The notes under the pieces were generated by a model that saw nothing but the letters and a program-made list of their open reading frames with translations, ran no database searches and had not been told where the DNA came from. Below, one piece after another: positions 41,325-64,000 of a DNA stretch of 64,000 nt. The DNA comes from Taiwanofungus camphoratus. Taxonomy: Eukaryota > Basidiomycota > Agaricomycetes > Polyporales > Taiwanofungaceae. The position numbers and the translations under genes are program-made. Location: the NCBI GenBank assembly GCA_003999685.1, contig CP021232.1:186001-250000 (forward strand). Direction: 5' to 3'. Numbering within the stretch: the first letter of the stretch is position 1; the number at the start of each line of letters is the position of its first letter.

Positions 41325-41436
41325 CCCTTGTTGAGACGCTGGTCTTATCCAATCCTTCCTATGAGGACGTTGGTGAGGTTCGGTTGTTTCGTCCATTCGT
41401 TTCGGATTCAGGTTCACTATCCGCAGATAGGGGTTC

Positions 41437-42276: not shown

Positions 42277-42755
42277 TGATACATTTTTCTTTCTTCATCA
42301 TTACCACGGCCATTGCTTACACATGGACTATTACTGTACGGGCCCCGGATCAGCCCCACTTACACATAGGACTCTGACTCATATCTGGGCCGCTTACCAC
42401 ATTCCTCATTACTCATACGATTGCTAATACGCCCGGATTGTACCACTTCCCATTTACCTCAGAGTTGTACCACATTTCGGACCTCCTGCCCTAGAGTAGT
42501 TCTTGGTCCGTGCGCATAGTAGGTACTTGTATATATAGCATGTACTTTAGCTTAGGTCGGACCTTAAGTTCAATCTGGTTACTATTCATTACTCATGTCT
42601 TGCATCCTCTTGCTCGCATCTGAGGAATACTCGCTCGAGTCTACGGACTTCACGACACTCGGTCTATATTGACCATAAGTCCTCGCCACCTTCTATCGTG
42701 GTCGGGCCCTCATGTGTGAGGCAACATATAGGATCCGAGATACCAGTTTGTATCA
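42277..42755 (+). mobile_element. Family A solo LTR in the DUF6589-like remnant
   Basis: 479 bp beginning TGATACATT and ending TTTGTATCA, with the 5-bp target GCATC repeated exactly at 42272-42276 and 42756-42760. It is about as long as, and similar throughout to, the LTR at 57401-57877, including the TATATATA box and the TTAAGTTCAATC motif. No internal region is left, so recombination between two LTRs removed it. Confidence 0.88.
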
Positions 42756-43439
42756 GCATCAGCAAGTCTTGCTAACAATTGTATATTGTCATTCTTAATC
42801 AATAAGATTAATTGACTTACACATAACCAGAAAACTGTGACAATCATCAGCATCATGATGCAAAGTGTAAATCAGCAATGTAACGCCTTACAAAGCATTA
42901 TTGGAATATTTCTACATTCATGCAATACATCTGAGAAGATTGTGAAGACACTGTCATGTATTGGAATCTCCATCTCATTTACATCAATTCATAATTCAAT
43001 CCACTCACTTTCAAAGCAAAGTGTGAATAACATTCAAGAGCTGGGACAGACCCATCTGGTTTAACACACTAGTGCCAACAGTTGAGAAATCTGCAGACAC
43101 TCTCATACATCTAACATCAGTTGTCATGCTTCCATTGGAGCATGGCATAACATCTGATGATCTGCAATGCTCTGAAGAGCTTTGGAAAAAGTCTGCTTGG
43201 TGATAGGCACCAGGCCCTCCTAGGCCCAGCAAAGTGCTCAGACTTGACCCTGTAGTCACACGCACACCTTCGACATCATTCAACAATGCCACTACAGTTT
43301 GTATGCCTCTTCAGGATTCTCCAATATCTTCAACTCGTGTCACAGCCACTCTGACAGACCTGGTCTGATCCTCCAGTGCACCATTTCCACTGTGCACAGG
43401 ACATCATATGCATTGCAAGTCAATATCCCACACAATCCA

Positions 43440-44497
43440 GTAAGAAAACCCCATTGCAACGGGCCAATAAACGCTGAGTTTGGCCCGTTGTGAACGGGCC
43501 ATCCAACATCGGCCAACCATTGAAACAAGCCCTGTTGTAATAGGTCGGCTGGGTGTGAATGTATTCCTGTTGCAACGGGTCGGTGTTACCGGAGGTGCAC
43601 CCATTAGCATGCTGCTTAATAGTGGGACTATATGCAGCTGGGTGACGAGGAGGAACACTAGCAACGATGAGTCACTTGCTCCTTAGGCATCTTCAACCAC
43701 GAGCCCTATATGGTCTCAAAGGGTTGTGGGCTTCTTGCGATACGAGGTAACAAGTAAAGCAAGGTATATTTGAGTACAAAGGCATAGTACTCTATAGTAT
43801 GAACAAAGAGGATAAAGCTGGAGATCCTCCATTGTCTGAGAGTTGTATATATACTACTGCTGCCGTCCCCCAGGTACTACTGTCACGACCCTGGGGACAG
43901 TGTAAAGAGAGAAAGGTAAGCGGCCTGCATGAGTAACTACAAATGGCGTAAGCGGAGACGGTCGGCCCGTCAGACAGATGGTGGATGAGTAACTGGAAGG
44001 GAGCCGCACGTCCATGATGTAAAGTGAGAAAAGTAAATACGTCCGTTGTCCTTACCAGCCGGTAACAGTCAGCCAGGCAGGGTACCAGCCCACTGCAATG
44101 GGTCGGCCGGCGATGGGACCTGCCCGTTGCAATGGGTCAGCCGGGGATGAGACCCACCTGTTGCAATGGGTTGGCCGGCGATGAGACCATCCCATTGCAA
44201 TGGGTCAGCTGGCCATGGCACTATCCCATTGCAATGGGTCGGCTGGCAATGGCACCAGCCCATTGAAATGGGTTGGCTGGCGATGGACCCATCCCGTTGC
44301 AATGGGTCAGCCAGGGATGAGACCCACCCGTTGCAACGGGTCGGTTGGCAATGGTACCAGCCCATTGCAACGGGTCGGCCGGGGATGAGACCCACCCGTT
44401 GCAACAGGTCAGCTGGCAATGGTACCAGCCCATTGCAACGGGTCAGCCGGGGATAGAACTATCTCATTGCAATGGGTCGGCCAGGGATGGTACTACC
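43440..44497. repeat. 34-bp palindromic minisatellite at the left side of the KDZ region
   Basis: The main part (about 44085-44497) has about twelve tandem 34-base units, each with a 14-base palindrome CCCATTGCAATGGG or its CpG version CCCGTTGCAACGGG followed by GGTCGGC-like and GATG-like words. Looser copies lie at 43446-43583, and a solo LTR splits the array. The palindrome differs between units mostly by CG to CA or TG changes. The array lies directly upstream of the TET/JBP gene. Confidence 0.85.
43584..44067 (-). mobile_element. Solo LTR (family B relative) inside the minisatellite
   Basis: 484 bp with ends TGTTACCGG and CCGGTAACA. The flanking bases GTCGG and GTCAG are a probable 5-bp target duplication with one change. 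Internal words such as TCTTCAACC and a TAAAG/GAGAAA run near the right end recall the family B LTRs, but overall similarity is low, so it is a separate subfamily or an old copy. Confidence 0.65.
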
Positions 44498-44775
44498 CTG
44501 GCTGTTATAGGTTGACCAAGACAGAGATGTCCATGTCTTCACAGGGAACCAGAAAGCTGGCATATGGAAGTCCTATTTTTGTCAATGATTTGGCCATTCT
44601 TTTTATAAAGCACACATATTCCATATTGGCTTGTACTGGCTGTTGTTGTCATGGCATTTGTAATTGTATACATTTGTTTGGCCCATGTTACAATTTTTTT
44701 GATTTGCTCCAGCCAACATTTCTAGACCAGTCTGTCACCTTTGCTTTTGAAGTGACTGTCATAAGCACATCTATG

Positions 44776-46066
44776 GCCAATCATTTTGAATATACTGAGA
44801 ATGTGGCATCTTACCTTCATCAACTTTTCTTGCATCACCTGTCTCAAATGTCCCCTGATCCCCCTCCACCTCCCTCTTCTATATACCCCAGCTTAAGCTT
44901 CTCATTGAGATTTGTTCAGAATGCCTATCAGATATCTGCCAAGTTGGCAGAAGCCTATATGACCCGCTGTGAGCCAGAGACAGTTGTTCTGATGTCTCCA
45001 TTGCTGATGTTGTATGATTGAGCAGTGACAGTGTCCTGGGACATTGGAGCCTATGTTGAACAGCTGACCCCTCAAATCTCTGGGTTCAACAAGGCTCAGG
45101 AGGCCAGGATCTCTGAACAGTTCCCTCCATTGTTTGATGATCCCATGCCAGTCATCAAAACCCCAGTGACTGTGGTGGATCAGCATGAGAAGATTCTGGT
45201 ATGGCATCTACCTGATGTGCTGAGCCCAGAGCATCAGGTGAGTTTGACCTGATTTTTGCTTGTGATGATGAGCATGATGTTTGAGATGGTCAGCACCAGA
45301 TATGGGATGATTCAGCAATGCTGAACCAGGTGTTGAAATCCCATCATCCCCAGTCAGAGGGCAACTGGAGGATCAAGTCTGAGTATTACATGAATGAAGA
45401 CCAGTGTGAGCAGTTTCTCCCTGGATGCATCAACCTGTCCCCAGCATGGTTTCAACAAGGACATGAGGTGAGTGACAAGGGATTTCATGCTCACACCAGT
45501 TCTGACATGAGGCCAACACCCAGAGCATGAGTTTCAATCCAGAGGTTTGCAGTGTGCTGAAGAAGCCAGACTCTGTGAGCAGGATATGGCTGCAGAGAAT
45601 GAGGGAGACCTCTGCATTGATAGGGGGAATATTGAGCATCATTCACCCTGAGCTTTACAGGTCTGGCATGGCCTCATTGAGAGGGATGCAATGGCTTCCA
45701 GGGGTGGATGAGGTGCTGAAGGAATGGCATTCCCCCTTCAATGCGATGAGCTTCATTGCCAACAGGGAAAGTCTCAGTCACAGGGACTGGAAGGCCATGG
45801 CATGCTGGTATGACATCTTGGTGACCATTGGGAACTCTCAAGATTTGACCTTGGATCTGGAGGGGGTGGGGGTGAGACTGGCCTATCCTAGTGGGACCAT
45901 CACAGCCCTGTCTGGGAAGACCATTTTGCACAGGGTGGTGGGGAAGGAGGAGGAGAGGATATGTCTAGCCTACTATATGAGGACCAAGATACATGAGAGA
46001 GCAGAGGTGTCATTGGCTGATTGGATGAGTGTAGATACATATGATGGAGTGTTATATACAACTTGA
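44776..46066 (+). CDS. TET/JBP-family 2OG-Fe(II) dioxygenase of the KDZ transposon
   Basis: TET/JBP enzymes oxidise 5-methylcytosine or thymine in DNA using 2-oxoglutarate and Fe(II). Exons about 45026-45239, 45300-45469 and 45524-46066 join in frame at GTGAGT...AG sites. Conserved fungal TET features are LVWHLPDVLS, INLSPAWFQQGHE, LSIIHPELYRSG, then LSHRDW with the HxD iron ligands, the sheet LDLEGVGVRLAYPSGTI, ILHRV with the distal His, and RICLAYYMR with the 2OG-binding Arg. All ligands are present. The 5' end is uncertain: an open stretch from 44776 (MANHFEYTEN, Pro-rich) may be the first exon. It is next to a KDZ transposase gene, the setting known for these genes in mushrooms. Confidence 0.82.
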
Positions 46067-46257
46067 CATGCACACACTGTCAGGCATCCATGGCAATCAG
46101 AAGCTCTGAGACCTCAATGGAATCAACCAATCATCTTTTTGACAGGTGCATCACCATCTGTGCCTGACTGGCTGCACCCCTCACTACCAGCACCACCCCT
46201 GACACCACCCCTTCACTGTTAGTATCACATGTGTGATGGCTGGCACCCCACACATCA

Positions 46258-46515
46258 CCATCAGTGCCACGCCTCTCGCCACCGGCGCCGCACTCCTCGC
46301 TGCCAGCGCTGCTCCCCTCGCTGTCAGCGCTGCACTCCTCGCCACCGGCACCGCACTCTTTGCCGCCGGCACTGCACTCTTCGCCACCAGCGCCGCACTC
46401 TTCACCGCTGGCACTGCACCTTTTGCTGCCAGCACTGCACCTTTTGCTGCCAGCACCGCACCTTTTGCTGCCAGCACCACAACTCTGGCCACCGGCACAG
46501 CAACTCTAACTGAAG
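46258..46515 (+). repeat. 21-bp minisatellite array 1
   Basis: About twelve units of the type CTCGCCACCGGCGCCGCACTC, diverging at the ends. It lies between the TET/JBP gene and the next gene on the opposite strand. Frames through it give Ala/Thr/Pro or Ser/Pro repeats on both strands and are not genes. Confidence 0.8.
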
Positions 46516-46705
46516 GCACCTCACCTGCACTCCTTACTGTGGAGGACCTCTACCTCTGGGTGACAAAACCAGAACATGGCCTGAAATGATGGGCAATTGG
46601 CAAAGGTGTATCCTCAGATCTACATAACTGCCCAAGTTTTCAGGCTGTATCCTTCCTCTGTTTCACAAGCTATAGGTGAATCTATGTACACATGACAGTT
46701 TTCTA

Positions 46706-47764
46706 CTACACCAAAACAGGTTGCTTCTCCAGGTCCCATATCCTAGCAATGATGTCAATCTCCCTTAGCATGTTGACCCTCACCTGCATCTCATATGCCA
46801 GCTGTTTATCCACATAGAGCATGTGAGCCTGCACTCCCTCCAAGTACTCCAAGATGGACTCATCCATCTGAGCAGGCAGCTTCTTGGCCAACTCATCCAG
46901 ACTGGGCCCCTCATATGCTGGAACAGCCAAGACAGCAGGATGTTGCTGCTCCTCCACATGGGCTCTCCATTCATTGATCTGTGTGGTCTGGGTCAAGATG
47001 GAAGGGGACAAGAGGGGCTCAGAGAGCACTCACCTTTCTCTTCATGCCTCTCACATTAGCATCAGCCTCCATCTTGTGCTTGAGGGCAAGCACCATTTCT
47101 TGCCTCAGGAACCTGTCATTCCCCTGAAAGATCTGCTGGACAAACTGCAAGAGATCAAGGATCACTGGAGGACAGGGAGGAGGGGCATCACCCATCTGGG
47201 CCTTCCACCAGTTGCCCATCCTGATGGCATGATCTTGAGAGATGCTGGGATCTGGGGCACTGCACAGCTTGAGGTTGAGATGTGACCTGGATTTCTCAAC
47301 AGCAGGGTGCTGGAGATCCTCTGATGGAGTCTGGATCTCAGTGGGCCCTGTGTCCCCCACACTCTCAGACTCCCTGGGCAGTGGTGGAGCCAGCTGGGCC
47401 TATAGAGGATCATGAACTCCAGGCAATAGAAGAGTTCAGGATGACACTCACCTGATGAAGAAGCCCCTGCATATCAGTCTTCACCAAGTCCTCAAGGCTG
47501 GGAGGGATGTGAAAATCCAAGCCTGCAATGGCCCTCAGGCCAATGGTCATAGCAGCCTGGAGCTGCAACAGGGGATGTGAATGTGTCAGTCTTTCAGACA
47601 ATGGCACCAAGGGTCCATCATGTACTCACCACTCCCTTGGCCATGACCATCTGCACCTCTGCATCCTCAGGGAAGGTGTTGGCCTTCATGATCTCCAGAT
47701 GGACAGGGAGGACCAGATGTGCCTCCATAGAGTCAAGCAGGGAAATGGTAGCAGCAGAAGCCAT
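46706..47764 (-). CDS. Unknown KDZ-element gene B
   Basis: Four exons on the minus strand join at GTGAGT...AG sites: about 47636-47764 (MASAATISLLDSMEAHL), about 47458-47570 (MTIGLRAIAGLDFHIPPSLE), about 47035-47400 and 46706-46990. They give roughly 300 residues. Visible features are an amphipathic helical middle (LLQFVQQIFQGNDRFLRQEM) and a last exon rich in Glu and Leu (ILEYLEGVQAHMLYVDKQ) that may form a coiled coil. There are no Cys clusters, membrane segments or catalytic motifs I recognise. All frames are open, so the gene is probably functional. Its place between the TET and KDZ genes suggests it belongs to the mobile unit. Confidence 0.6.
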
Positions 47765-48002
47765 TGATGTTACACAGAGAATATGGGCAGAGAGATGGAT
47801 GGGACAGAGATGGCAAGGCTGATAACACCAGATCAGATGCATCCTCTCAACTCTGTGGATCACATAACATGCCCATGATGTGATTCAAGATCAGAATATT
47901 GCTGGACCAGTTACACTCATAAGATAGATCAAACTAATTGATTGCACTGGTGAGGTAAGGTACACTGGCACAGTGAGATGCAGTGTGATCGGCCAGTGGT
48001 CA

Positions 48003-48290
48003 GGCATCAGTGAGAACAGCCATGGCCCCAGTGACCAGTGATGCAGCACTGGCAGCCAACGGTGCCATGCCGGTGGCCAATAGTGTCACGCTGGTGGCCA
48101 GTAGTGCAGTGCCAGCATTGAAGAGTGCGGCACTGGTGGCAAAGAGCACAGTGCTGACGGTGAAGAGTGCAGCACCGGCGGCAGGTGGTGTGGTGCCAGC
48201 AGTGAGGGGTATGGCACTGGTGGTGAAAGGTGCGGCGCCAGCAATGACAGTTGTGGCACTGGCTGCCAGTGATGCCACACTGATGGTGCT
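48003..48290 (-). repeat. 21-bp minisatellite array 2
   Basis: Units of the same kind as array 1 but in opposite orientation (for example GAAGAGTGCGGCACTGGTGGC), more diverged. It lies between gene B and the 3' end of the KDZ transposase gene. Confidence 0.75.
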
Positions 48291-48423
48291 ACATGGGGGA
48301 TATGAGTGCAGGACATCATTTGTGTGTAGCAGACAGCCTGGGATATTACTCTTACTCAACTGCCCCTCCACAGTATCAATATAATGTTGACACACAGTGT
48401 GGGCATGCATATATGTCAACATC

Positions 48424-51400
48424 CTACAATACATGGGCTACTTGCTCCACCCATTGACATAGCCTCTCTGCATCTCTTGCCAATGCCAAGTACAAGAATG
48501 CCTGTTGAGCACCATATGCCCTATGACCCATCTGGTCCCTGTCTGTGGATTCCTGCATGAGCCTCACCCACATCTCACTCTGGTGGACAAAGTAGTTGGC
48601 AGCAAACCTCATCTCATACCTTAGCTGCTTCTTTTCTTCCACCACCCTGTCATACCTGGACTTTGCCCTAAACCAATTCACCCTATAAACTGTCACCCCC
48701 GACGTCAGCCATTCATGAGACACAGCCCAAGGGGTGATGGCACTCACATTTCTGCATATATGAGTCTGTGTCGCTTTCCCCTTGAATATCCATGGTCCAG
48801 AACCATGGAAGGGATGTCCCCCTTTCTCCCCTTTTATTGGGATCTGCCACTGCAGTGCTCACCTTCAGGTGCTCTCTGTGCAGAACCTGATACTTGGCCA
48901 GGAGGTCGACTGGGGCCTCAAGACGCACCAGGGCCTTCCGGGCCTTGCTGTACACCCTGGCATGATGCTGCAGGGTTTTGTCTATGGTGTTGACATCCTG
49001 CCATGCCCTGGTCTTCCTCTGCTGGGACTTGGCATTGCGCACCTTGGTGCAGAACAAGAATGACTTTTGCCTGATGGCAATCCAGATCTGATGAAGGGCA
49101 TCATTGGCCTGACCTTCCCTGAGATCCATCTCCTGTTGCAGAAGCACTTGTAGGCCTGCCTGGTGGCACCTGTCCACTCCAATGGTGGATGGAAGGGAGA
49201 GGAATGAGTATTCGGCCTCCATCTCAGGGTTGACCCCTTGAGAATTGGGTGCCTCGAAGGGATTGTCCATCTCGGTGACATCCCACTCCTCACCCAGATC
49301 CTCGTCTGGTGGTAAAACCTCATCTTCCCACTCCTCCCCATTGTCATCCATCAGGCCGGCCATGTATCTTGATCTTTGGGACTCAAAGCTGTCGATCCTC
49401 ATTTGCAGCTTCCTCCTTTTTTCCACCAACTGGATCTTCTGCTGGGTGGTCAAATTCCGGCCCATGGATCTGACCTCAGTGGCCAAGGAGATTCTGTGCC
49501 CATCATGAGAGGATGAAGATGTCATGATGCACATGGCCACTCACTGTGTCTCCTGAACCTTCAGGCCTTGAGTCAACCATCCAACAGCCCCTCGGGACAA
49601 ACCCAGGTGGGGCTCCTTCTCGGCCAGCCTCAGTTGGATGTTGGCCTGGCTTGGTGCTGGAGAATGAAGGCCAATGTTGAAAAGGGATGGTTCCAGCTGC
49701 ATGCCAATGCACTTACCTTTCCTGAGCTCCACATCAAAGACATCCATGGCTTTTTCATCCTTCAGCCTGTGTTGTTGAGCCTTTCTCATCTGCTGTTTCC
49801 ACTGGACCAGCAGAGTGGGATCAATGCTGGCCTCCATGGCCTGATATGACCTTTTGGTGTCTGTCAGTATGGGCTTGATGTTCTTGTACTTCCTCTGCAA
49901 GAAAGACACTGTGTGGGATGCCCTGGGTCAGCCGAATCCACTCATTGCCGGAACAGGACCGTCATACCAGTGTTGATGATCTTCTTCCAGTTGGAGTCAT
50001 TCATGTGCCGGTTGAGAACCTCCTTCCAGTGAGAGGTGGCCATGCCTCTGGTGCTGCCAGACACCTTGTTCAGGGAAGACCAAAGGGTCTTGAGGATCTC
50101 TCCATCCACCAGGCCAGCACCGGGGATGAAGCTGGGTGAGTATCGGATGAAGCAGGCATCCTGGTGCCCATGCACGTGGAACAGGCCGATGCCCTTGACA
50201 ATTTTGAGACCTTCGGGCATCTGAAGATAGGGATTTTGCTGGAACCGCTTCAGCAGATACTGACCATACTGGCAGTTGATGTCATAAAGCAGGAGCATCC
50301 TGCCAATGTCCTTTGTGTTGTACCCAATGGCGTTGGACAGGGAGTAGTCCATGTTCATCTGTCTCTCCCCCTTTTGAAAGTCCACCATGGAGTGTGGCAC
50401 AAAGCAGCCATGCCGAGGACAGGCAGTGGCTCCGATCCCGGTGGACTCCAGCTTGTGCCGGTCAGCATTGGCCAGGTTAATGGCCTTGTGGTTGTGACAG
50501 GTGCCTGGCTGTGCAATGGGAAGAAAGATACATGGGATTATGGGCATGGGGACCAGTGAGATGGGAACCTACCCCCTTGAGCTCCTTGGCCACCTGGAGA
50601 TGGGCCTTGTACCTGCCATCGGCCACAAAGAAGCCAGTGCCATCAGTGATCTCCACATCATTCCTGGGCCTCCTCATCTTGAGATGCTCTGCAGAGAAGT
50701 TGCCATCCATCATGAACCCTCGGGTGTACACTGATCTGGACATGGTCAGACCGGGCACAGCCAGACTGGGCTCAGATCACTTACTGGTCAGAATGTTCCT
50801 TCCAATCTGGGTCCAAATTGACTCCAGGTTGTGGGCAGGCAGCACAGAAAAAGGCAAGGTCACCTTCTCCAGGCTGCTGTCTGGATGGGTATCCAAACCC
50901 ATGTCGCATGAGGTCCTTAAGATGAGACCACTGTCTGGTGACTCTGAGGAATTGCTGATACTGGTCCTTGATGGTGGGGTACCCCATGAGCATTGGCAAT
51001 CTCCTGATGGGTGGCGGTGGGAGCACTCACTGGCACAGCTTGGGGGAAAACAGGATTGGTCACCCTCCTGAGCCGGCTGTAGAAGTTGAGGGCAGAGGTC
51101 TTGCATTCAAGGTTCTCCAGCAGGAAGTCATCGAGGACCTTGAAAGTGAAACATGTTTTGATGTGCCTGTGACTGGCAGGGTAGAGGCCCATGTCCAGCA
51201 GCTGGTCTTCATGACAAGGGGCATTCACGCACCCACACCAGTGAATGGGAAGTTGGTGAATGCCAGAGGTATCGACCACGACCATCATTTGATGGTTGCT
51301 TCTGGTGCCAAATGCCACAAAGGCATGATTCCTGTCAATGTACTCTGAAGGTGATCCCAATGTTGCATGAGGTATGCCCTGTGTCTCACTAATGGCACCG

Positions 51401-52628
51401 CTATCTTCACCGGCAGCACCGCAGTCATCACCGTCGGCGCCGCACTCATCGCCACTGGCACTGAACTCCTCGCCACCGGCGCTGCACTCCTCGCCGCCGG
51501 CGCCACACTCCTCGCCGCCGGCGCCACACTCCTCGCCGCCGGCACCACACTCCTCGCCGCCGGCACCACACTCCTCGCCGCCGGCACCACACTCCTCGCC
51601 GCCGGCACCACACTCCTCACCGCCGGCACCACACTCCTCACCGCCGGCACCACACTCCTTGCTGTTGGTGCCGCACTCCTTGCTGTCGGTGCCACAGTCA
51701 TTGCCAATGGTGCCGTGACTATTTTTGACGGTACTGTGTTCATTTCTGACAGTGCTGTTGGTATCATTTTGTGGTAATTCTCAATTATCTAATTCTGGAA
51801 TGAGCACACACAAGATTCTGTCCTTGAGCACATCTCTGAGGGCACCACTCACCCGGCACGTCATCTGGCTCTGGGTTTGTGAAGACTGGAATGTCATCCG
51901 GCACCTCTCCCCCCTCCTCTTCCAATACCCAGTCATCCTCAGCCTCTTCCTCATCAGAGGACATCCCATCCTGTCTGTCCAGGGTCATGGGGCAGGCACT
52001 CCCCTTGTGGCCAAGCTGGATACATGCTCCCACGTCTTGCAACCAAGCTGGGGAAAAGAAGGTGTTATGGGTCCATTTCTGGATTCTGTGGAATGGTAGC
52101 CTGGCATGACCCAGTTTGCAGCACTCCATACAAAACATAGGTTTGGCCAGGCAGTCCAGACAGCGCCAGAGTGCCCCCTTCATGCTGCACCGGGTGCAAG
52201 AATGACTGGAAGAAGAGTGTGATCGTGGAGAGGGTTCTGTGTGGGCACCCTCATACATGTACAGTCTATTTAAATAATGCTCTTTGCTCTCCAGCCACTC
52301 CCTCATGAGATCAGGTTGAGACTGAGAAAAATGTGAGCTGTGATGCCATTGCAGTCCCACTGGCTCAGACAATGCCCACCTGAGTGGATGGAAATACAGG
52401 CTGAGAAATATGATCCTCATAGACAGGTAGATCATATCCTGCATTGGCATGCCTGCTTGTTCTTGGAGTTCGGAGAGGGGTGCTTCTGGTAGGAGTGCTG
52501 GGCAAGGATGAGCCAGGCTTATCTTTGATCTGCACCAACTGAGAAATCATGCCTCTGGAAGTCTTTTTCTGCTTCCATTTGGCCTCCTGGATGATGAGGG
52601 AGCTCAATCTTCTTTTTCTTTTTCCCAT
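48424..52628 (-). CDS. KDZ-superfamily transposase with CxC2-like cysteine cluster
   Basis: KDZ (Kyakuja-Dileera-Zisupton) transposases move large fungal DNA transposons using an RNase H-like fold. About ten exons are visible with GTGAGT/GTAAGT...AG borders. In order: a basic start (MGKRKRRLSS), a CxC2-like zinc cluster (CTRCSMKGALWRCLDC, CMECCKLGH), VVDTSGIHQLPIHWCGC, LENLECKTSALNFY, then the catalytic core DGNFSAEHLKMRRP, ACPRHGCFVPHSMVDFQKG, LLYDINCQYG, and HVHGHQDACF with LVDGEILKTLW. The C-terminal part is helical and ends in VNWFRAKSRYDR and a stop at 48424-48426. The acidic residues in DGN, YDIN and DGE fit a DDE-like triad. All frames are open. The start is uncertain; 52628 is the first good ATG. 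One intron (about 51340-51852) contains a minisatellite. Confidence 0.85.
51400..51718 (+). repeat. 21-bp minisatellite array 3, inside a KDZ intron
   Basis: About fifteen units, the central ones nearly identical (CTCGCCGCCGGCACCACACTC). It fills most of the intron between the CxC2-like exon and the next KDZ exon. Near-identity of the central units indicates recent expansion. Confidence 0.85.
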
Positions 52629-52846
52629 CAGGTTCACCTGTTTTGTGGTGAAGAGCGGAAACACAGGAAAGGCACTCAAATATGTGTATTGAAGCTTGAG
52701 TGCAGATGCATGTGAGTGCACATTTGCGTGACAACAGGTGTGACCCATTGGGTTGGAGCGACTTTAGCAAAAGTGCACAACAGCTGAAGCACGTCAAACT
52801 AGGGATCTGCCTTGCCTCACTGCTCTGCTGCTCACTCACTTAAGCC

Positions 52847-55526
52847 ATGCCTAGGAACTCCATCCCTCAGACTCACAAGGATGCCATCAATGCTTTGTTC
52901 CCTGAGTGGAACCAGGCAGACAGAGCAGCCCGAGCGCAGTTCTTGCAGGATGTGTACAAGGATCTGGAGGAATTGGAGAACAGGAAGCTGACAGATGAGG
53001 AGAAAGAGGTGAGAGGTTCTGCTCTACATGACAGAGGACGTGCTCATGATCATCTCCATGCAGGCATTGAAGAAGTATGCCAGGAACAAGCAGGAGAAAA
53101 AGGCAGAGAGGAAAGAGTTTGATCCCAAATCATCATACACCTGGAGGAGTGTGGTGGTGACCCATTGCAAGGAGGAACTGATGCACAGGATGGCCATTCT
53201 GACTGGGGGTGCCAAACCAGGCAGCCCTCAGTGGATCACCCATTACCAGACTGTGAAAGCACAGTTGTGTGCTGCTGTGTCAGAAGAGCAGAAGGCTGCC
53301 TATGTGAGGGAAGCTGAGATATGGAACACAGAGGGAGCTCCAGCAGATGTCCAGATGGCCAGAGTGGAGAAGCATGGGGAGAAGGCAGTCAAGGAGTTTG
53401 TCCAGTACGTCTTCAAGATGATGGGCATGAGGGTGTATGTGCTGGGCGTGTACAGGGGAAAAAATGCCAAGATCTACACCACAGAGTGAGTGTGCAGTCT
53501 CCAATCATCCTCTCCTCTCTCACCTCCAAGCCCCAGTTTTGATTTCAATGACCAGTTGGGTGGTGGGGACAAGGTGGAGGACAAGGTGGCGGACTGGAAC
53601 TCAGAGGAGTATCTGAGGTTGTTCAAGAGATATGCAAACACCCAGTTCAGTGAGTGTCAGAGCCCATGTTGTCCACCATCCCGGTAGCCATTGACACCAG
53701 GACAGCACCAGAGCAGGAGGTTGATGGGGAGGAGGAGCCAAAGAAGAGAAAGAGGAATATGGAGCCGGCACTGGAGCTGGACACCACAGAGGATGGGGAG
53801 CCCCTTCTTCCATCTCAGGAGGTCATCTTGGCGGCGAGCCTGAATCAAAAGAAGCAGTTGATAGCACAGTTTGTGCGCATGCATTATGGTACGTCCCCCA
53901 TCCCTGTGGCCAAGCCGCCGGGCTGACTGGCTGATTGTCTGGGATGTCCCATAGTCAAGTGCTGTGGGATGCTGGAGGCAAAGGTGCCTTGGGGGGTGTT
54001 GCAGTCTGAGCAGGACAAATACATCTCAGCGGTGTATATGCCAGAGGACATCACTCTGAAGGACTGCACCAAGATGATCCAGGCAGATGTGGACTGGCTT
54101 CTGAATTTTTGGTCTGACTGGCAGGATGACCCGGAGGTGGACCACGCCTTCAAATTCAAGGCATGGAAGGGCAGGGACAAGGAACCTCAGCCACTGGTGA
54201 AGAGGGTCCCATCTCGGCCTAATCATCCCAAGTGGGCAGGCCACAAGAACAAGGGCAAGGGAAAGGCAGTGATGTCACCTCACCCTGAAGATGAGGAGAA
54301 CACCACCAAATCAGACAAAGACAGTAGTCACGATGAGTCAAGTGACATAGAGAATGGGAATGAGCCAGGACCTAGTGAACCACGTCGGTCAGGTCACACA
54401 CAAAGACCCAGAGTGGTGGGCAGAGGTAGAGCACCACTCACAGGAGGTGCAGCAGCGGCAGGGCCAACAGGTGCAAGCACTGCACCGGCGGGTGCAAGTG
54501 CGGCACCAGCGGCAACAGGTGCAGCGCCGGTGGGTGCAAGTTCGGTGCCGGCAGGCAGAGGTCGGCCCACTAGTAACCCTTTATCTCAACATACCCAATC
54601 TCCATCACTGGCACATGCTGGAGGACAGCCAGTGGCCAGTCATGTGGAGGATGAAGGAAGCGCATCAAGGACTCCTGCGCTGGCCATACCCAGGAGCAAG
54701 TTCAAGTCACCAGCAACAGTCCAAGACAGTCCTGAGGCAAGACAGACTTATCTGCTCAGTCTGTCCTGACAGATGCCGTATCGCAACTTCATCAAGACCA
54801 TCCCCAAATTGGTGTGTGGTTGTTCTTTTCATATTCATCATGGCAGCCTAAACATTCCTTGCCCAGGCTCACATTATTGTTTCTGGCAATCGGTCTCATC
54901 AATGGGCATGGGGGGAATGGAAGTACACCTCCCCCCACTGTACTAGAGCCATCCACAGCAATATGGCCACAGGCTCCAAGTTCACTCAGTGGCTGTCCTC
55001 AAAGCCCTATTACATCAGCAGGGGGGACAACTTTAAGCTGGACATGGTGAAGACCCAGAACATGGCGCTGGTGATTGGGCTCATGCTCAGGGACTTGGAG
55101 GAGGCCCAGGTGGCCAATGAAGTGGAGGGTGAGCCCACTGACCTGCCTGACTATGTTCTCAACTCAGTGCTCAGTGAGGACATGGTGGAGAATGTCCTGC
55201 TGCCTGCATGCGATGAGATGAGGGTAGGCATAGAGGCAGTATCAGATGACACTGAGGTGATGGGGGACAGCTCCAGACTGACCAGATCAGGTTCAAAGCA
55301 TCCCCAAGCACAGCCCAGTAAGTCTGGTGGACCTGATGTGCTACCTGTGCCAAAGAAGCATGTTGCCAGTCCAAAGGAGGGGAGCCGGAAGAGAAAAAAG
55401 AATGAGTTGGAGCCTGTGGAGGAGAAGGATGAGGTGGAATCATCATCTAGGAAGAAGGGGAAGGGGGTGCCTGGAAGACCCAAACCCAGGCTGGCCAACA
55501 GGGGTGGGAGGAGGACTGTGGCTTAG
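52847..55526 (+). CDS. Unknown KDZ-element gene C, chromatin-protein-like
   Basis: It is divergent from the KDZ gene, with about 220 bp between chosen starts. Exons join in frame at GTGAGA/GTGAGT/GTACGT...AG sites: 52847-53008, 53064-53486, 53534-53651, 53689-53886, 53955 to about 54755, then further exons to the stop at 55524-55526. The total is over 700 residues. The N-terminus is helical; KAQLCAAVSEEQKAAYVREAE and the surrounding Trp/Tyr spacing recall an HMG-box-like helix bundle. The middle and end are rich in charged Ser/Pro/Lys stretches with KKRKR-type nuclear localisation signals and an RRSGHTQRPRVVGRGR basic patch. An Ala/Pro/Gly run at 54440-54570 resembles the 21-bp minisatellites. 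Similar proteins recur in agaricomycetes beside transposons. Function unknown. Confidence 0.65.
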
Positions 55527-55554
55527 GTTGCATTGAGAGGAGGAAGACCAGGGT

Positions 55555-55765
55555 TGCAGTACCAGCAGCAATGGGTGCAGTGCCAGCGGCGAGGGGTGTG
55601 GTGCCGGCGGTGAGGGATGTGGTGCTGGCGGTGAGAGATGCGGTGCCGGTGGCGAGGGGTGTGGCGCCAGCAGCAAGGGGTGCAGCACTGGCAGCGAGGA
55701 GTGCGGCGCCGATGGTGAGGGGTGCGGCGCCAGTGGCGAGGGGTGCGGTGTCATCAGCCGGAACT
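55555..55765 (-). repeat. 21-bp minisatellite array 4
   Basis: About ten units of the type GCCGGCGGTGAGGGATGTGGT, the reverse-complement orientation of arrays 1 and 3. It lies between the converging genes C and D. Confidence 0.8.
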
Positions 55766-55910
55766 GCAATACTCATTAGCTACGTTTGGCTGTCTCTTGG
55801 ATATGACAAGTTCTCAGTTTAGTTCACCAAAGTCACAATTCTTACATTGATGCTCACACTGTGTAACAAAAAACCTGCAAATGGCATTTAATGTAATAAG
55901 GTACAGCCAG

Positions 55911-57400
55911 CTAATCTATCACCATGTCTATGTCCTCCTCCTCCCCATATCCACTCATCATGTTGGCCCAGCTCCCCCCAGCAGCTACACTTCCACCTGG
56001 GTTGCCTCTCCCATCCAGTTCCATTGCTGAGGGAGAAGCTGGGGCCAGTGCTGGGCAGTGGGAGGTTGGTGGTGGGATGGGAAGTGGAGCTGGGGATGTA
56101 GGTGCTGGCGGTGGGGAAGAGGCTGGGGGGGGTGGAGGCAACAGCTCGGGTGGGGGTGGGGGCAATGGGCCAGGTGAGGGTGGGGGAGAAGGAGCCAGTG
56201 GAGGCGGAGGAGAAGGGGCCAGTGGAGGTGGGGGAGAAGGGGCTGGTGGAGGCGGGGGAGAAGGGGCCAGCGGAGGTGGGGGAGAAGGGGCCAGCGGAGG
56301 TGGGGGAGAAGGGGCCGGCGGAGGTGGGGGAGAAGGGGCCATTGGCAGTGAGAGTGAAGAGGCTGGCAGGGACAGAGGAGAAGGGGCTGGCAGAGGTGGA
56401 GGAGAAGGAGCCAGTGGGGGCGGGGGGGAGAGAGCCAGTGGGGGTGGAGGAGAGAGAGCCAGTGGGGGTGGGAGAGAGGGAGACGGGGGAGGCAGGGGAG
56501 AGGGAGATGGCAGGGGTGGGGGAGAGGGAGCTGGTGGGGGTGAGGGCGAATGGGCCAGTGAGGGTGGGGGAGAAGGGGCTGGTGGTGGTGGTGGCATGCC
56601 CCCCTGTGCAGCTGTAGGTGTGGTCAGAATGGTCTTTGATGGAGAGGAACTATCACTCACCATGATCCTGTCTCTCCTGCCTATCCACCAACCTTTCCAA
56701 TGTCTCCCTCATCATCTCTATCACCAGCTCCATCCCAGCAACCCTTCCTCTAAGTGCCAGGTTCTCCTGCTCCAGCTGTTCAATCTGTGCTGGCCACCCA
56801 CCACCATCCATCACCTGGAGATAAGGAAGCGGATCGGTGAGGTGGGGAACACAAAGGGTTGGGGGTGGATCTTGGATGAGAACATAAGCACGATCTATTT
56901 AGCATCAATATGTGTAAGATGGATAATGAAATGGTGCTTACTGATGGGCTTGCCCTTCCCTGTCCTGCTGCACTTGTCCTTCCCTCTGCTGCTTGACGGC
57001 CCGGCATCACTGGAGGCAGCTGCTGCTGTTGATGTTGACGGTGCCCGTGCCATGTCCTTTATCCTTGCCATCCGTCTGGTTGTCCAAGATGATGTAGGCA
57101 GCGCCGGTGCAACTGGGGATGATGAGCAGCTGGTGGAAGACCTGTTGCTACCGGATGGATGAGAGGTGGCCTGGAGGTTCTGGGAGGGGGGCCGTGGGAC
57201 ACACTTGTGCTTGTACATATGGCATCTGTCGCATGCTGATGTGCGTCCTCCTGGAACGGCCTTGGTGGGATCTGTGAAAAGGAGACACTCCCCTGGCTCA
57301 CATGCCATGCAGGGGTGCTCCTACCAAAGTCTTGAGCACTCAGGAGGGATGGATAGGGCAATGACGTACCATTTCCCTCTCCCATTCCTTTGACTGCGTC
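55911..57400 (-). pseudogene. KDZ-element gene D (six-Cys module, coiled coil, Pro-rich tail), cut by an LTR element
   Basis: Minus-strand exons read toward lower coordinates. A module about 57190-57320 reads CMACEPGEC and, 20 residues on, CDRCHMYKHKC, spaced CX2CX4C...CX2CX6C. A Ser/Ala-rich basic linker follows to about 56945. After an intron, QIEQLEQENLALRGRV and MMRETLERLVDRQ form a coiled coil (56660-56820). The last exon (55911-56645) encodes about 20 repeats of SPPPPLAP type and an acidic end DIDMVID. Zinc module plus coiled coil recalls fungal DNA-binding regulators, but the Cys spacing is not that of Zn2Cys6. The upstream exons are beyond the family A element inserted at 57401, so this copy has probably lost its normal 5' end. 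Confidence 0.6.
56150..56600 (-). repeat. 24-bp coding tandem repeat in gene D
   Basis: Near-perfect units of the type GGAGGTGGGGGAGAAGGGGCCAGC (shown on the plus strand in part), coding for SPPPPLAP on the minus strand. The array is strongly purine-biased on the plus strand. The repeat spares the frame, since units are a multiple of three. Confidence 0.8.
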
Positions 57401-57877
57401 TGATACAATTTCTATTTCTTGTCATTACCACGGTCATTGCTTACACATGGACTATTACTATACGGGCCCCGGATCGGCCCCGCTTACGCATAGGACTCTG
57501 ACTCATATCCGGGCCGCTTACCACATTCCTCATTACTCACACGTATTGCTAATACGCCCGGATCGTACCACCTTCTATTTACTCAGAGTCGTACCACATC
57601 TCGGACCCCCTGCCCTAGAGTAGTTCTTGGTCCGTGCTCATGATTGGTATTTGTATATATAGCATGTACTTTAGCTTAGGTCGGACCTTAAGTCTGATCT
57701 TCTTACTATTATATTCGTGTCTTGTATCTTCTCGCTCATATCTGAGAGATATTCGCTCGAGTCTATCGACTTCACGACACTCGGTCTATATCGACCATAA
57801 GACCTCGCCACCTTCTATCGTGGTCAGGCCCTCACGTTCGAGGCAACGTATAGGATCTGAGATACCAATTTGTATCA
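57401..57877 (+). repeat. 5' LTR of family A element copy 2
   Basis: 477 bp, TGATACAATT...AATTTGTATCA. It holds a TATATAT box at 57654-57660 and, 35 bases on, TTAAGTCTGATC, the likely start of the transcript. Confidence 0.9.
57654..57701 (+). promoter_or_regulatory. LTR promoter core and self-primer motif (family A copy 2)
   Basis: The TATATAT box at 57654-57660 is followed by the 13-base motif TAAGTCTGATCTT at 57689-57701, where the RNA should begin. The reverse complement of that motif is the primer site just inside the LTR at 57879-57891. Confidence 0.65.
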
Positions 57878-57878
57878 A

Positions 57879-57891
57879 AAGATCAGACTTA
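57879..57891 (+). other. Self-primer binding site (family A copy 2)
   Basis: AAGATCAGACTTA lies one base inside the 5' LTR and is exactly complementary to 57689-57701. In copy 1 both halves differ in the same way (TTCG in place of TCTG), so pairing has been kept. Confidence 0.7.
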
Positions 57892-58024
57892 CACCAAGTC
57901 GCCCCTAGTACCATCTAGCGGGCCTACATCCATTACCACGTCTTACCTCAGGACCGTCGATCCTGATTATTGGGGGTTACCTACACGAGGACAGGAACCA
58001 CTTCTCTACGACATCGAACAACGA

Positions 58025-59208
58025 GTGTTCGTAGACGCGAACCGGAACCCAATCTATCCGAGTTCACCGCTTACCTGGGTTAGAACAACATCCAGACGAC
58101 CAATCCAACAAGCACAGGCCAACCTCGCTACTTACTTCCAGCGAAACCCTGTCGACGAAGGAAAAGACATAGCCATCCTGTTCACGGAAGGATCACAAGA
58201 AGCCACACCCATCGAACAAACCGCCGAGGGCTCATTCACCACCTCCACTTCCCGAACCCCACTCCCACTCCATCTTCTTCCACATCCACTCCTCTAATAT
58301 CCGCACCCATACCTCAACGAGTTACAATGGCCACGATCGGGAACATGACCCAGCAGCAGCTGGAGGCACTCATCGCCTGCCTCAGTACCCAACAGCAAGG
58401 GGCTCGAGCCCTAAAGCTCAACATTCCTGCACCGGACCCTTTCACCGGGCAAGGAGAAGATCTGGATCGATTTATCCAGCGGGTGGAACACTACTTCACC
58501 GCCACGAACAACACCAACCTCAGCGATGACGCAAAAATCGCATTCGCGGTCGCTCTCATGAAGGGAGGGCAAGACGCACGCATATGGCGTGACACGTTCT
58601 ACGAACGAGCGGCAGGGGGTCAGGCACCCTACAGAACTTGGGACCTATTCAAGGGATCCCTCAAGTTGGCCTTCCCAGAACACGAGGGAGTGCAGCGAGC
58701 ACATCAAGTGCTCATGGAATTACCAGCCAAGCAGCTGAACAAGAAAACGAGGGCCACTACTAAAATGTATGTGGAAAGATTCCGACTTCTGGCCGAAAAG
58801 GCGAAGTTGAAGGACGCATCCATCGATGCAAATGGAAATCGCACCGAGAACGATTACCCTACCCTTAGGGCGATATTCATCAAGGGGCTAGACCGCCAGA
58901 TCTATGCCACCTTAGCCGGAAGGGCCATATCCGAAAGGCCAGACACCATGGAAAAATGGTACAGGGACGTCCTATCCTTGGACGCAATCTATAGGGGGAT
59001 CGACCAGATCTCCAACATCACCACTACGGTCGATTATGGCGAACCCATGGACGTGGATGCAGTCGTCACACGCCCAACACGCACTCCTCCATCCTCCTCT
59101 AACAGAAAGCAATGGACGGATGGTTGCTCCTTGAACGAAAGCGAAAGGAAATACCACCGCGACAATAACCTATGCTTCTATTGCCATAATAGAGGACATT
59201 CGGCATGA
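58025..59208 (+). CDS. Gag region of family A element copy 2
   Basis: Capsid-like region with ALKLNIPAPDPFTGQGEDLD and LMKGGQDARIWRDTFYERA, ending at a zinc knuckle (CFYCHNRGH). It corresponds closely to 2172-3494 of copy 1. It is treated as part of a fossil element with a small number of breaks. Confidence 0.85.
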
Positions 59209-62200
59209 GACTGTTGCAAGAAAGCGACAGCAAGGACGAAGAACACGCTCAAGGCGCAGGACTCGCGCCCCATAGACTATCGCTCCTACATCAAGAGCCT
59301 ATCGGCCGACGAGAAGAGGGAGGTCATGGAAGAATTAGCCACAGAGGATTTTTAAAGGGGCAGGGTGAGTCGACGCAACCGCTGCCCATTTCTGTTTCAC
59401 TGTCCCGTGTTGTACTAGTAGTCCGGAATGAAAGGGCCTTACACATTCCGATTGCTGTGGGACGAAAAGACGTCGAAGCGCGCGCCTTCATTGACAGCGG
59501 CGCCTCTGGGATATTCATACATCCCAGATTTGTTAAAGAACACAACATCTGCACTGAGGCTCTACCTCGCTCAATGCCCATGTTCAATGTGGACGGAACG
59601 GCTAACAAGCAAGCCACCATTACGAAAAGGGCCCTTCTTTCATACAAAATAGGAGGAGAACCCCAATTCATTAAAGCCTATGTGGCCAGCATAGGGAACA
59701 AAGATATCATCTTCAGGCATACCTGGCTCAAGCTGAAAAACCCAGACATCGACTGGAAGGCAGGACGGGTAGAGCTAAAACATCGCATGACTCTGGAAGA
59801 ATCTAGGGAATGGAAGAAAAACCTACTGGAAACCAGAGCCAAACAGCTGGAAATCAAAAGACTTGCGGTAGAATCCCTCTCTAAGGAAATCATTAAAGCT
59901 CGCCAACCCACGGTCAAAGAAATTGAGGACGAAGGGGATGGGGAAGTCGTGGACACCATGTCCCCAATTCTACCAACTGTAGAAACCCCTCGCCAAATGA
60001 CACACCGAGACTCGTTAGTCTCAACCCCGGAAGAAAACTCGGTAAACGGCATCACACTCGAACAGGCCATGGAAACAATCGACGACGACGAGCTGATCTT
60101 AGCATTCATCGAAGGAGACGACCGAATCACCACATATGGACGGGACTCTCACCTAGCATATCGAGACGCTCCACTCACGGAAACAAAATACCCCCTCAAC
60201 GGAAACTACCGTCACCTTGAAAACGGTCTTATCTGGCAGGTCACGCACGACATCGGTCGACTCACCACGTCCACGGAACTCGCTATTAGAGAACACGCCA
60301 AGAAGGAGGAGAAACCGGTCACGGAACTCATCCCTGAGTACCTCCACGATCTCCTCCCGGTGTTCGACAAAGCTAAAGCAGCAAGACTTCCTCGACATTC
60401 GGAGTTCGACCACGAGATAAATCTTAAGCCGGATTTTAAGGACTTCAAGCAGACGACATATTCTCTCAACCGCGAGGAACGAGCGGAACTGGACAAGTTC
60501 CTCGAAGAGAATATAGAGAAGGGATATATCCACCCGTCCAAATCGCCACTCGCAAGTCCATTCTTCTTCGTGGATAAGAAGGACGGTGGATACCGACCTT
60601 GTCAGGACTATAGGGAACTCAACGAGGGAACGATCAAAGACAGATATCCTCTTCCCCTCATAACGGAGCTTCTGGAACGCCTCAATAACGCCACGATCTT
60701 CACGAAAATGGACCTTCGTCAAGGATACAACAACCTTCGCATTAAGGAAGGTGACGAATGGAAAGCGGCTTTTGGTGTTCCCGCAGCCGGGGAAGGACCT
60801 CCCTCGTTCTACGAACCCCTGGTAATGTTCTTCGGGATGTGCAACTCACCGGCAACATTCCAACGGATGATGAACACGGTCTTCGCAGATATGCTCAAGG
60901 AAGGGTGGTTGGCCATCTACATGGACGACATCCTTATTTACTCGACAGACCCCAAGGAGCATAAGAAGCGAACACGGCGAGTTATCGAAAGGTTGCGAGA
61001 TAACGACCTGTACCTCAAACCGGAGAAATGCAAATTCGACGTACAAGAAGTCGAATTTTTAGGCATGATTATTAGGCCCGGACAACTTGCCATGGACCCA
61101 GTCAAGGTAGCCGGCATCAAAGACTGGCCTATACCTAAGAACCTCAGGGAGGTTAGGTCGTTCATCGGATTCGGGAACTTCTACCGTCGGTTTATACGCA
61201 ACTTCTCACACCTGGCCCAGCCTCTGATCTCGCTTACGCGAAAGGACGTCAAATGGCACTGGGATAATGAACAGCAGGAAGCTTTCGAGGCACTAAAGAA
61301 AGCCTTCTTGGAACAACCGGTTTTACAGATGCCCGACCCAGAGAAGCCGTTCGCATTGGAAACGGATGCATCAAAATTCGCCACAGGGGCCGTCCTCAGG
61401 CAAAAAGACGACAACGGTGATTGGCATCCATGTGGTTATATTTCCCAAAGCATGACGCCAGCGGAACGAAATTACGACGTCTATGACCGAGAACTCATGG
61501 GCGTCATGAGAGGACTCAACGAGTGGAGTCACCTCCTCATCGGAAGCCCGTATCCAGTCATAATTTACAGCGACCACAAGAACCTAACATACTGGAAGAC
61601 GGCACGAAAGCTGAATCGAAGGCAAGCGCGATGGGCTCTTCGCTTGTCCGAATTCGATTACAAATTAGTTCATGTCCCGGGCACGCAAATGGTACAAAGT
61701 GACGCGCTCTCCCGACACCCCGACCACGATGATGGTTCATCAGACAACCAGAATGTAACCGTCCTACCAGACAAGGTATGGGTAGCGGCAATCGACACGA
61801 GCCTAAGGACTTTCATCGCGAAAGCAGGTATAAACGACTCAGTGTATATGGAAGGGCTGCGTAATGCACAAAACGGCTCAAACGATCACTGGACAGTTCG
61901 AGATGGCGACCTCCTCTATGATAATCAGGTGTACATTCCCCTGGATGAGAACCTACGACGGCAAACGGTCTCAAATTATCATGACCTTCCGCACACCGGT
62001 CACCCTGGAATTGTCAAAACCCTGGGCTCCCTGCGAAGGGACTATTGGTGGCCCGGAATGGCCGACTTCGTCACCCGTTATGTTCATGGCTGTGGCACCT
62101 GCCAACAAATGAAGGTTAACACTCACCCAGACCGTCCCGCCCTCGTCCCTATCCGAGCCGCCACTCACGCCACACCATTTAGCACCTTTTGTTGTGATTT

Positions 62201-63236: not shown

Positions 63237-63279
63237 ATCCAGTTCACTCCCTTCAAACGAACTACCACCTGCTCGCAAC

Positions 63280-63969
63280 ATGCCTCGCCAGTCTAACACC
63301 ACCGCCCAAGCTGCCGCTCGTGGCCGAGCCCGCGCCTTCCTTGCCACTCGACGCGCTACCCGTACACCTCAGACCGCCACATCTCCCACGGCTTTATCAT
63401 CCTCATCGTCGGCATCCTCTGGTCACGGCCCACTCTTTGGTTTTCAAACCGCCGCACAATTTCGCAACCCCGTGCCGGGAGAGGGCGCTTTACCCCGACA
63501 AGCCGACGTCATCTACTACCCGCGTTGCATCTATGACGTGGACCCCATCCTCCTCGACATCCTGGTTCGACACTCGAGAGATATCGCACGACTACTTGGG
63601 TCTCTACCGAATACGTGAAACAACCAGGACGAGCAAGAAGCGTACGGGGAATACATCGACACCAGGCTACAATACTTAGGAGCGGTGGATGACGTGACCG
63701 AACAGCTAGCCATATGGAAAAACAAAATCCGACAGTTAGACTTCAAGGTGGTCCGCACTCTACGCAGGATGGACGATATGTCCATGGCCCGCCACCTCCA
63801 GGACATGATCGCCCCACACCGACGAAACAGCCACGCCAAGTTTATACGGCGACCTCAACCAGACATTGTCATACACGGACCCACCTCGCTGCCTGAACCC
63901 GAAGACCCCCTCCAAACCTTCATTGACACCCCGGCCGGACAGGAGTCCATCGGAGCCGTACCCAGCTGA
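63280..63969 (+). CDS. Post-pol ORF region of family A element copy 2
   Basis: Starts 43 bases after the Pol stop. The first part is Ala/Arg/Ser-rich with ADVIYYPRCIYDVDPILLDI, and a later part has AIWKNKIRQLDFKVVRTLRR. I recognise no domain. Family B also has an ORF in this position, though not obviously related. The region appears broken once. Confidence 0.5.
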
Positions 63970-64000
63970 ATTGACTCTCTCCCGAACTACATGCGCCCTG

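What the first reader, a model, noticed from the sequence alone, without database searches (positions are those of the whole stretch)
43440..57400. A five-gene KDZ transposon region carrying a TET/JBP DNA dioxygenase
Seen: on one 14-kb stretch lie a KDZ transposase with a CxC2-like cluster, a TET/JBP-type dioxygenase with its metal and 2OG ligands, and three more multi-exon genes (B, C, D), spaced by related minisatellites. Known: fungal TET/JBP genes are widely associated with KDZ transposons in agaricomycetes. Inference: B, C and D travel with the element and may help it read or reshape host DNA methylation. The set of five, and gene B in particular, may not have been described as a unit.
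Basis: partly seen in the sequence, partly recalled or inferred. Interest (0 to 1): 0.9.

Follow-up and report, generated by a model that had tools for sequence, protein, structure and literature searches.

The report
Fungal transposon carrying a TET oxygenase
This looks like a large fungal jumping gene that carries its own DNA-methyl-oxidising enzyme and three further genes; it has few CG sites left although its genes still read open, a likely scar of long silencing by DNA methylation.

Summary
At 44,848-57,393 lie a KDZ transposase with a CxC2 cluster, an AG-type TET/JBP dioxygenase and three multi-exon genes without a family match (C, B, D). All five read without a stop on hand-drawn splice models, but D has no clear start: it runs into a gypsy LTR (57,401), so the right end is outside the window, and no terminal repeat or target duplication could be shown. 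No fungal genome was available. (1) Outside tandem arrays the block has CpG obs/exp 0.13-0.15, in genes, introns and spacers alike (gene C: no CpG), against about 1.0 in host DNA and the outer gypsy elements. Neutral decay to that level gave stops in 250 of 250 simulated runs (means 13-64); none is observed. (2) A 21-bp minisatellite occurs in five places in the block and nowhere else in 64 kb. Both favour B, C and D as old passengers of a selfish element over host genes. Neither proves one element: an adjacent, probably broken coding remnant is as CpG-poor. KDZ+TET elements are known; I found no report of such a CpG desert with open genes.

The parts
43450..44490 (+). tandem array (34-bp unit, 12 copies at 44,084-44,490, two outliers at 43,450 and 43,566) with a 14-bp palindrome CCCRTTGCAAYGGG; inferred ancestral unit carries five CpG, much decayed to TpG/CpA; function unknown, inferred binding-site array; may lie inside or beside the element
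   Evidence: TRF; 14 of 15 palindrome matches (up to 2 mismatches) in the window fall at 43,450-44,476, chance mean 0.78 for the window; unit analysis
44848..46066 (+). AG-type TET/JBP dioxygenase, 353 aa, exons 44848-44968, 45026-45237, 45294-45467, 45512-46066
   Evidence: PF12851 E 1e-18; CcTET 7vpn/8jkk E 5e-25; model without stop; ligands
46243..46502 (+). 21-bp minisatellite between the convergent TET and C genes
46706..47764 (-). gene C, 297 aa, 4 exons, no family match; zero CpG in 1,059 bp
48062..48250 (-). 21-bp minisatellite between C and KDZ
48424..52628 (-). KDZ transposase with CxC2-like cysteine cluster, 1,075 aa, 10 exons
   Evidence: PF18758 E 7e-49, PF18803 E 2e-26; model
51388..51715 (+). 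21-bp minisatellite inside the 508-bp KDZ intron 51,345-51,852; 38 CpG
52847..55526 (+). gene B, 788 aa, 7 exons (possibly two genes, split at about 54,773); HMG-like helices suspected, not shown; diverges from KDZ across a 218-bp stretch
   Evidence: structure models of pieces of exon 2 inconclusive
54470..54560 (-). 21-bp minisatellite inside B coding sequence
55550..55750 (-). 21-bp minisatellite between the convergent B and D genes
55911..57393 (-). gene D, at least 445 aa, 4 exons: cysteine cluster C-x2-C-x4-C-x17-C-x2-C-x6-C, coiled-coil-like stretch, Pro-rich repeat, acidic tail; 5' end meets the gypsy LTR
57401..64000 (+). gypsy element (5' LTR 57,401-57,877, then gag-pol) that hides the right end; not part of the KDZ unit
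42277..42755 (+). solo LTR of the same gypsy family, 88.8% identical to the right LTR, flanked by GCATC on both sides; not part of the KDZ unit

Best explanation
The stretch is most of one copy of a large (at least 12.5 kb) KDZ-superfamily DNA transposon of a fungus, probably an agaricomycete, that carries an AG-type TET/JBP dioxygenase and three accessory genes (C, B, D). Shown here: the genes, their open frames on drawn models, the shared CpG scarcity, the confined minisatellite. Inferred: the KDZ protein cuts and pastes the element; the TET protein oxidises 5-methylcytosine on it so that it can be transcribed despite host methylation; D, with a zinc-cluster-like motif and a coiled-coil-like stretch, binds DNA as a dimer, possibly the CCG-N6-CGG palindromes of the 34-bp array in front of TET; B is a chromatin-binding partner; C has no assigned role beyond travelling with the element. 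The copies from which this one descends were methylated for so long that most CpG outside the tandem arrays decayed to TpG or CpA while selection among transposing copies kept the proteins open. A later gypsy insertion cut off or split the 5' end of D, so this copy is probably no longer complete.
For: Family matches. CpG obs/exp 0.15 in coding and 0.13 in non-coding non-array DNA of the block, TpG and CpA both raised (1.47-1.74), against 1.00 in host DNA 8,000-22,500 and 0.99 in the right gypsy element. Each of the five genes shares it: CpG in coding sequence 2, 0, 43, 34, 26 for TET, C, KDZ, B, D against means of 68, 55, 210, 171, 107 if the same proteins are written in the codons of the two outer gypsy elements. 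The best CpG-poor segment of the window, found without gene coordinates, is 42,711-57,362 (log-likelihood ratio 425; next best to its left 46, to its right 5). Neutral decay to the observed CpG counts gave stops in 100 of 100 runs for TET+C+KDZ+B (means 20-64) and in 150 of 150 runs for 13 of the 14 long exons from a milder start (means 13-37, minimum 5); observed: none in the 14 long exons (2,236 codons). 21-bp minisatellite in five places at 46,243-55,750; the three hits outside have E 2.5, 3.2 and 7.7. In the literature AG-type TET genes show no transfer between transposon superfamilies (PMC12730594).
Against: No element ends: no inverted repeat between the visible flanks; 7-bp duplications next to CA..TG ends are at chance (5 seen, 3.8 expected over the wide right stretch; 0 seen, 0.12 expected near the end). 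CpG scarcity is not specific to the five genes: the coding remnant beside them (28,200-29,058 plus 42,065-42,272 plus 42,761-43,440) is as poor. TET and C (2 CpG in two coding sequences) are poorer than KDZ, B and D (103), which could mean separate histories. No relative of B, C or D was found. Two weak splice donors. The codon signal of D is weak.
Confidence: 0.62

Rival explanations
1. Several selfish elements lie side by side in an old methylated transposon graveyard: KDZ plus one or two of the genes form the element, the rest (TET+C, or D) belong to neighbours, and all share CpG loss because all were methylated.
For: The remnant next door is equally CpG-poor; TET and C have almost no CpG, KDZ, B and D keep some; TET genes move between transposon superfamilies in Pucciniomycotina and, for PE-type genes, probably in Agaricus bisporus (PMC12730594).
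Against: Open frames in all five genes, against a remnant that is probably broken (not tested for introns); one minisatellite family in three of the four spaces between genes, in a KDZ intron and in B, and nowhere else; no second transposase match among the long frames scanned in 44,848-57,393; AG-type TET genes show no transfer between superfamilies (PMC12730594).
Confidence: 0.3
2. B, C and D are ordinary host genes next to a KDZ-TET insertion.
For: None has a transposon family match.
Against: Their CpG obs/exp (0.20, 0.00, 0.22) is that of KDZ and TET, not that of the host stretches (0.94-1.0); they interleave with TET and KDZ on both strands.
Confidence: 0.04
3. A dead element decayed in place by CpG deamination; the open frames are chance or the product of my choice of introns.
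For: Two weak donors (KDZ 49,895, B 54,719), one 38-nt intron; D meets an LTR; introns were chosen by hand.
Against: 0 of 250 simulated neutral decays kept the frames open, also when only long exons were used; codon signal persists in B and C.
Confidence: 0.04

Closest known systems
TET+ Kyakuja and Zisupton transposons of Agaricomycetes (Kojima 2025, PMC12730594; text parts 1-5 of 7 and figure legends read)
   Same: KDZ transposase and AG-type TET/JBP gene on one stretch; position equal to CcTET Asp337 conserved.
   Different: The text read names no accessory genes for Kyakuja; here there are three more genes. Ends (7-bp duplication, CA..TG, no inverted repeats) could not be shown. The position of CcTET Gly331, said to be Gly or Ser, is Ala264 here. 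The main text holds neither the word CpG nor minisatellite.
KDZ/TET/HMG gene neighbourhoods (Iyer et al. 2014, PNAS; not held, recalled)
   Same: KDZ-linked TET genes; additional proteins, one with a divergent HMG domain, which gene B may be.
   Different: Could not be compared; HMG fold of B not confirmed.
CcTET of Coprinopsis cinerea (7vpn, 7w5p, 8jkk)
   Same: Aligned over 202 residues, E 5e-25, HxD, downstream His and Arg kept.
   Different: Ala instead of Gly at the 331 position, a residue linked to 6mA use (PMC12730594; PMC13297926, passages).
KDZ1-KDZ3 of Cryptococcus neoformans (PMC12810828, passages read) and KDZ elements of Marasmius oreades (PMC8290104, passages read)
   Same: KDZ transposase with a cysteine cluster, about 9-11 kb, shown mobile in Cryptococcus.
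   Different: Cryptococcus elements have CxC1, 139-241-bp inverted repeats, 4-8-bp duplications and hardly any methylated CpG; the passages read mention no TET gene in them. The Marasmius paper says it characterised a terminal inverted repeat motif for its KDZ and Plavaka elements; here none was found.

Membership tests
KDZ superfamily | KDZ transposase domain | tested here: met
   PF18758 E 7.4e-49, profile 3-217 of 217; catalytic residues not checked one by one
KDZ superfamily | associated CxC cysteine cluster | tested here: met
   CxC2 PF18803 E 1.6e-26; CxC1 below cut-off
KDZ superfamily | element ends with target duplication (7-8 bp) | tested here: inconclusive
   right end hidden by gypsy LTR; 7-bp matches at chance; 8 bp not tried
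TET+ Kyakuja (Kojima 2025) | AG-type TET/JBP gene in the element | tested here: met
   best PDB relative is CcTET; HxD rather than HxE; D270 at the 337 position
TET+ Kyakuja (Kojima 2025) | Gly or Ser at the CcTET 331 position | tested here: not met
   Ala264; the paper reports this as observed, not as a defining mark
TET+ Kyakuja (Kojima 2025) | CA..TG ends, 7-bp duplication, no inverted repeats | tested here: inconclusive
TET+ Kyakuja (Kojima 2025) | transposase falls in the Kyakuja clade, not Zisupton or Dileera | not testable with these tools
   no reference KDZ sequences held
HMG-box protein (gene B) | HMG-box sequence match | tested here: not met
   no Pfam match reported at E up to 10 (the program's filters drop most matches above about 0.1)
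HMG-box protein (gene B) | three-helix HMG fold | tested here: inconclusive
   140-residue model pLDDT 49.9; 73-residue model three helices (H6-25, H33-49, H52-68), pLDDT 61.6; no HMG entry among 44 and 27 weak fold matches
Zn2Cys6 zinc-cluster protein (gene D) | C-x2-C-x6-C-x5..12-C-x2-C-x6..8-C (spacing recalled) | tested here: not met
   spacing here 2-4-17-2-6 (cysteines 12, 15, 20, 38, 41, 48); no Pfam match
RIP-mutated element | raised TpA/ApT, CpA lost (recalled) | tested here: not met
   TA/AT 0.35 against 0.72 in host DNA, CpA raised

The most novel reading that the evidence does not exclude
The element has escaped methylation by losing its targets: it purged CpG from genes, introns and spacers and keeps nearly half of what is left in tandem arrays, which act as methylation-sensitive control sites. 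The palindromic array (CCG-N6-CGG) in front of TET would be bound by D only when unmethylated, and TET keeps it so: a self-contained anti-silencing switch made of a methyl eraser, a methyl-sensitive reader and CpG-bearing sites in a CpG desert.
Probability: 0.12. Interest if true: 0.85.

Novelty: new member of a known kind. Interest (0 to 1): 0.52.

Why it matters
Why transposons carry TET genes is open; the usual proposal is escape from methylation silencing (PMC12730594). A TET-bearing element with open genes and few CpG left suggests, from DNA alone, that such an element was methylated for long and yet stayed under selection. It makes a simple survey possible: CpG scarcity in TET+ against TET- KDZ elements across fungi. 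If the TET protein protected its own element, erosion should be weaker in TET+ elements; here it is strong. CpG content also offers a way to tell passengers from host genes when element ends are hidden.

Tried and rejected
Terminal inverted repeats between left (42,761-45,144) and right (55,527-57,404 and from 57,406 to the window end) stretches: only low-complexity or weak matches, E 0.26 or worse. Target duplications of 7 bp with CA..TG ends: at chance. Inverted duplication of the left flank around the 34-bp array, suggested by short inverted matches: local score 490 against a shuffled maximum of 492, rejected. Relatives: IMG/VR scans with pieces of B, KDZ, C and D gave pattern hits but no confirmed relative, and with TET no pattern hit; GTDB with KDZ: 67 pattern hits, none confirmed; B in plasmids: none. 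These collections are viral, bacterial, archaeal and plasmid, so the absence means little. HMG fold of B: not supported and not excluded. A stop at 45,019 upstream of TET first looked like a lesion; an intron 44,969-45,025 (GTGAGC..GCAG) removes it in frame, one of 18 candidate introns that would. RIP rejected. Literature for CpG loss in KDZ elements: three searches listed no such report by title or abstract start; I read passages of only some of the listed papers.

Limits: gene models are hand-drawn without transcripts; the simulations assume a start in gypsy or pol codon usage, single-base changes only, and stop at one CpG where the observed count is zero; one search left out the Pro-rich exon of D (13 of 14 long exons simulated). 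The CpG-column test of the 34-bp array defines its columns from the same units, which favours the result. In the scripts the right LTR was taken from 57,405 and the solo LTR edges were a few bases off; the sequence shows 57,401 and 42,277-42,755, which changes no conclusion.
Full report
Setting. The window holds DNA of a fungus, judged by short GT-AG introns and by the transposon families; no genome is held for it. Host-type genes (amidase, HAT-repeat splicing factor) lie at about 10.5-15.3 kb, and gypsy-type sequence at 1-4 kb, in 29-42 kb and from 57.4 kb to the end.

Anatomy. From left to right: a 34-bp array with a 14-bp palindrome (43,450-44,490), TET (+), C (-), KDZ (-), B (+), D (-). 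TET and C converge, KDZ and B diverge from a 218-bp stretch, B and D converge. Pfam finds TET_JBP, KDZ and CxC2 and nothing above cut-off in B, C or D. The TET protein aligns with CcTET over 202 residues, E 5e-25; H259, D261 and H309 match the metal ligands and R318 the arginine that binds 2-oxoglutarate (role of the arginine recalled), and D270 and A264 stand at the Asp337 and Gly331 positions without a gap. By the published reading of these two positions (PMC12730594; PMC13297926, passages), 5mC activity is expected and 6mA activity is doubtful.

Edges. On the right, the LTR of a gypsy element begins at 57,401 (TGATACA; sequence), seven bases beyond the first codon of my D model; the only in-frame ATG before it is the last codon of exon 1. 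So D is cut, or at best has lost its upstream region. A second LTR is not in the window to the right, so the right end of the KDZ element is not visible. On the left, a solo LTR of the same family (42,277-42,755, GCATC on both sides) and a nested LTR block (29,059-42,064, ATGGG on both sides) split a coding remnant that lies between about 28,200 and 43,400. The left end of the KDZ element is therefore probably between about 43,440 and 44,848. No inverted repeats and no convincing duplication were found.

CpG erosion. In 44,848-57,393 the CpG obs/exp is 0.23; TET 0.03 (2 CpG), C 0.00, KDZ 0.29, B 0.20, D 0.22, against 0.94 in host DNA 5,451-22,500, 1.11 and 0.99 in the two outer gypsy elements and 0.71 in 28,101-42,265, which includes parts of the CpG-poor remnant. 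Outside the 21-bp arrays it is 0.15 in coding and 0.13 in non-coding DNA, with TpG and CpA both raised, which points to mutation at CpG rather than codon choice. A segment search without gene coordinates returns 42,711-57,362, from the end of the solo LTR to just before the right LTR. TA/AT is low (0.35), so this is not RIP. Within the 34-bp array, CpG columns carry 34 C-to-T or G-to-A changes and 6 others in 120 cells, other columns 30 changes in 288 cells (the definition of CpG columns favours this).

Selection. If the same proteins start in gypsy codons and decay neutrally to the observed CpG counts (one where none is observed), TET+C+KDZ+B collect on average 64, 40, 29, 26 and 20 stops for CpG rates 10, 20, 40, 80 and 200 times the base rate; 0 of 100 runs stay open. 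Long exons alone (13 of 14, without the Pro-rich exon of D), from the milder codon usage of the 28-42 kb pol gene, give means of 37, 23, 18, 16 and 13; 0 of 150 runs stay open. Observed: no stop in the 2,236 codons of the 14 long exons. The erosion therefore most likely happened in a lineage under selection, not in this copy after death.

Arrays. Hits of the 21-bp profile with E below 0.01 fall in five places, all within 46,243-55,750; the three hits outside the block (E up to 10 asked) have E 2.5, 3.2 and 7.7. The five arrays cover 1,069 of 12,546 bases and hold 91 of 209 CpG. Either they are younger than the erosion, by turnover, or their CpG is kept for a use; the data do not decide.

Comparison with the literature. 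TET+ KDZ elements are established: Kojima 2025 (PMC12730594; outline, parts 1-5 of 7 of the text, figure legends and one word search seen) describes TET+ Kyakuja in five agaricomycete orders with 7-bp duplications, CA..TG ends and no inverted repeats. Intact KDZ genes of Pleurotus ostreatus are preceded by CxC2 (PMC7641404, passages), as here. Cryptococcus KDZ elements have long inverted repeats and CxC1 (PMC12810828, passages); the Marasmius oreades genome paper reports inverted-repeat motifs for its KDZ and Plavaka elements (PMC8290104, passages). In Marasmius repeats are methylated at about 0.75 of reads per CpG and active transposons less (PMC9674265, passages). I found no paper that reports CpG erosion in KDZ elements (listings). 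The 2014 paper of Iyer et al. is not held; what I say of its abstract is recalled, as are zinc-cluster spacing and site preference.

Verdict. The inference that B, C and D travel with the element is supported by shared erosion and shared repeats, but not proven. The set is best filed as a new member of the KDZ-TET kind, with an unusual and useful feature: open genes in a CpG desert, with nearly half of the remaining CpG in tandem arrays.

Noticed in passing
29,059-42,064: Nested LTR retroelement block flanked by ATGGG on both sides; inner LTR pair 34,778-35,348 / 40,754-41,324 is 99.8% identical, so a very young element lies inside.
   Followed up: partly
28,200-29,058; 42,065-42,272; 42,761-43,440: Coding remnant split by two LTR insertions, as CpG-poor as the KDZ block, no Pfam match above cut-off for the pieces scanned; looks like another transposon gene and may be a sixth part of the unit or a neighbour.
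   Followed up: partly
44,084-44,490: In the 12 palindromes the left half-site shows A for G at column 9 (7) rather than T for C at column 8 (1), the right half-site T for C at column 16 (8) rather than A for G at column 17 (1): mostly dyad-related strands decay, and all four combinations occur. Units share ancestry, so the changes are not independent.
   Followed up: no
44,848-47,764 against 48,424-57,393: TET and C have 2 CpG in coding sequence together, KDZ, B and D have 103: a difference in degree within the block.
   Followed up: no
5,449-7,234: Second, weaker CpG-poor stretch (log-likelihood ratio 46) beside the host genes.
   Followed up: no
27,412-28,065: Tandem repeats of the AGAACGGACGGC type with high CpG at the edge of the host part.
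   Followed up: no
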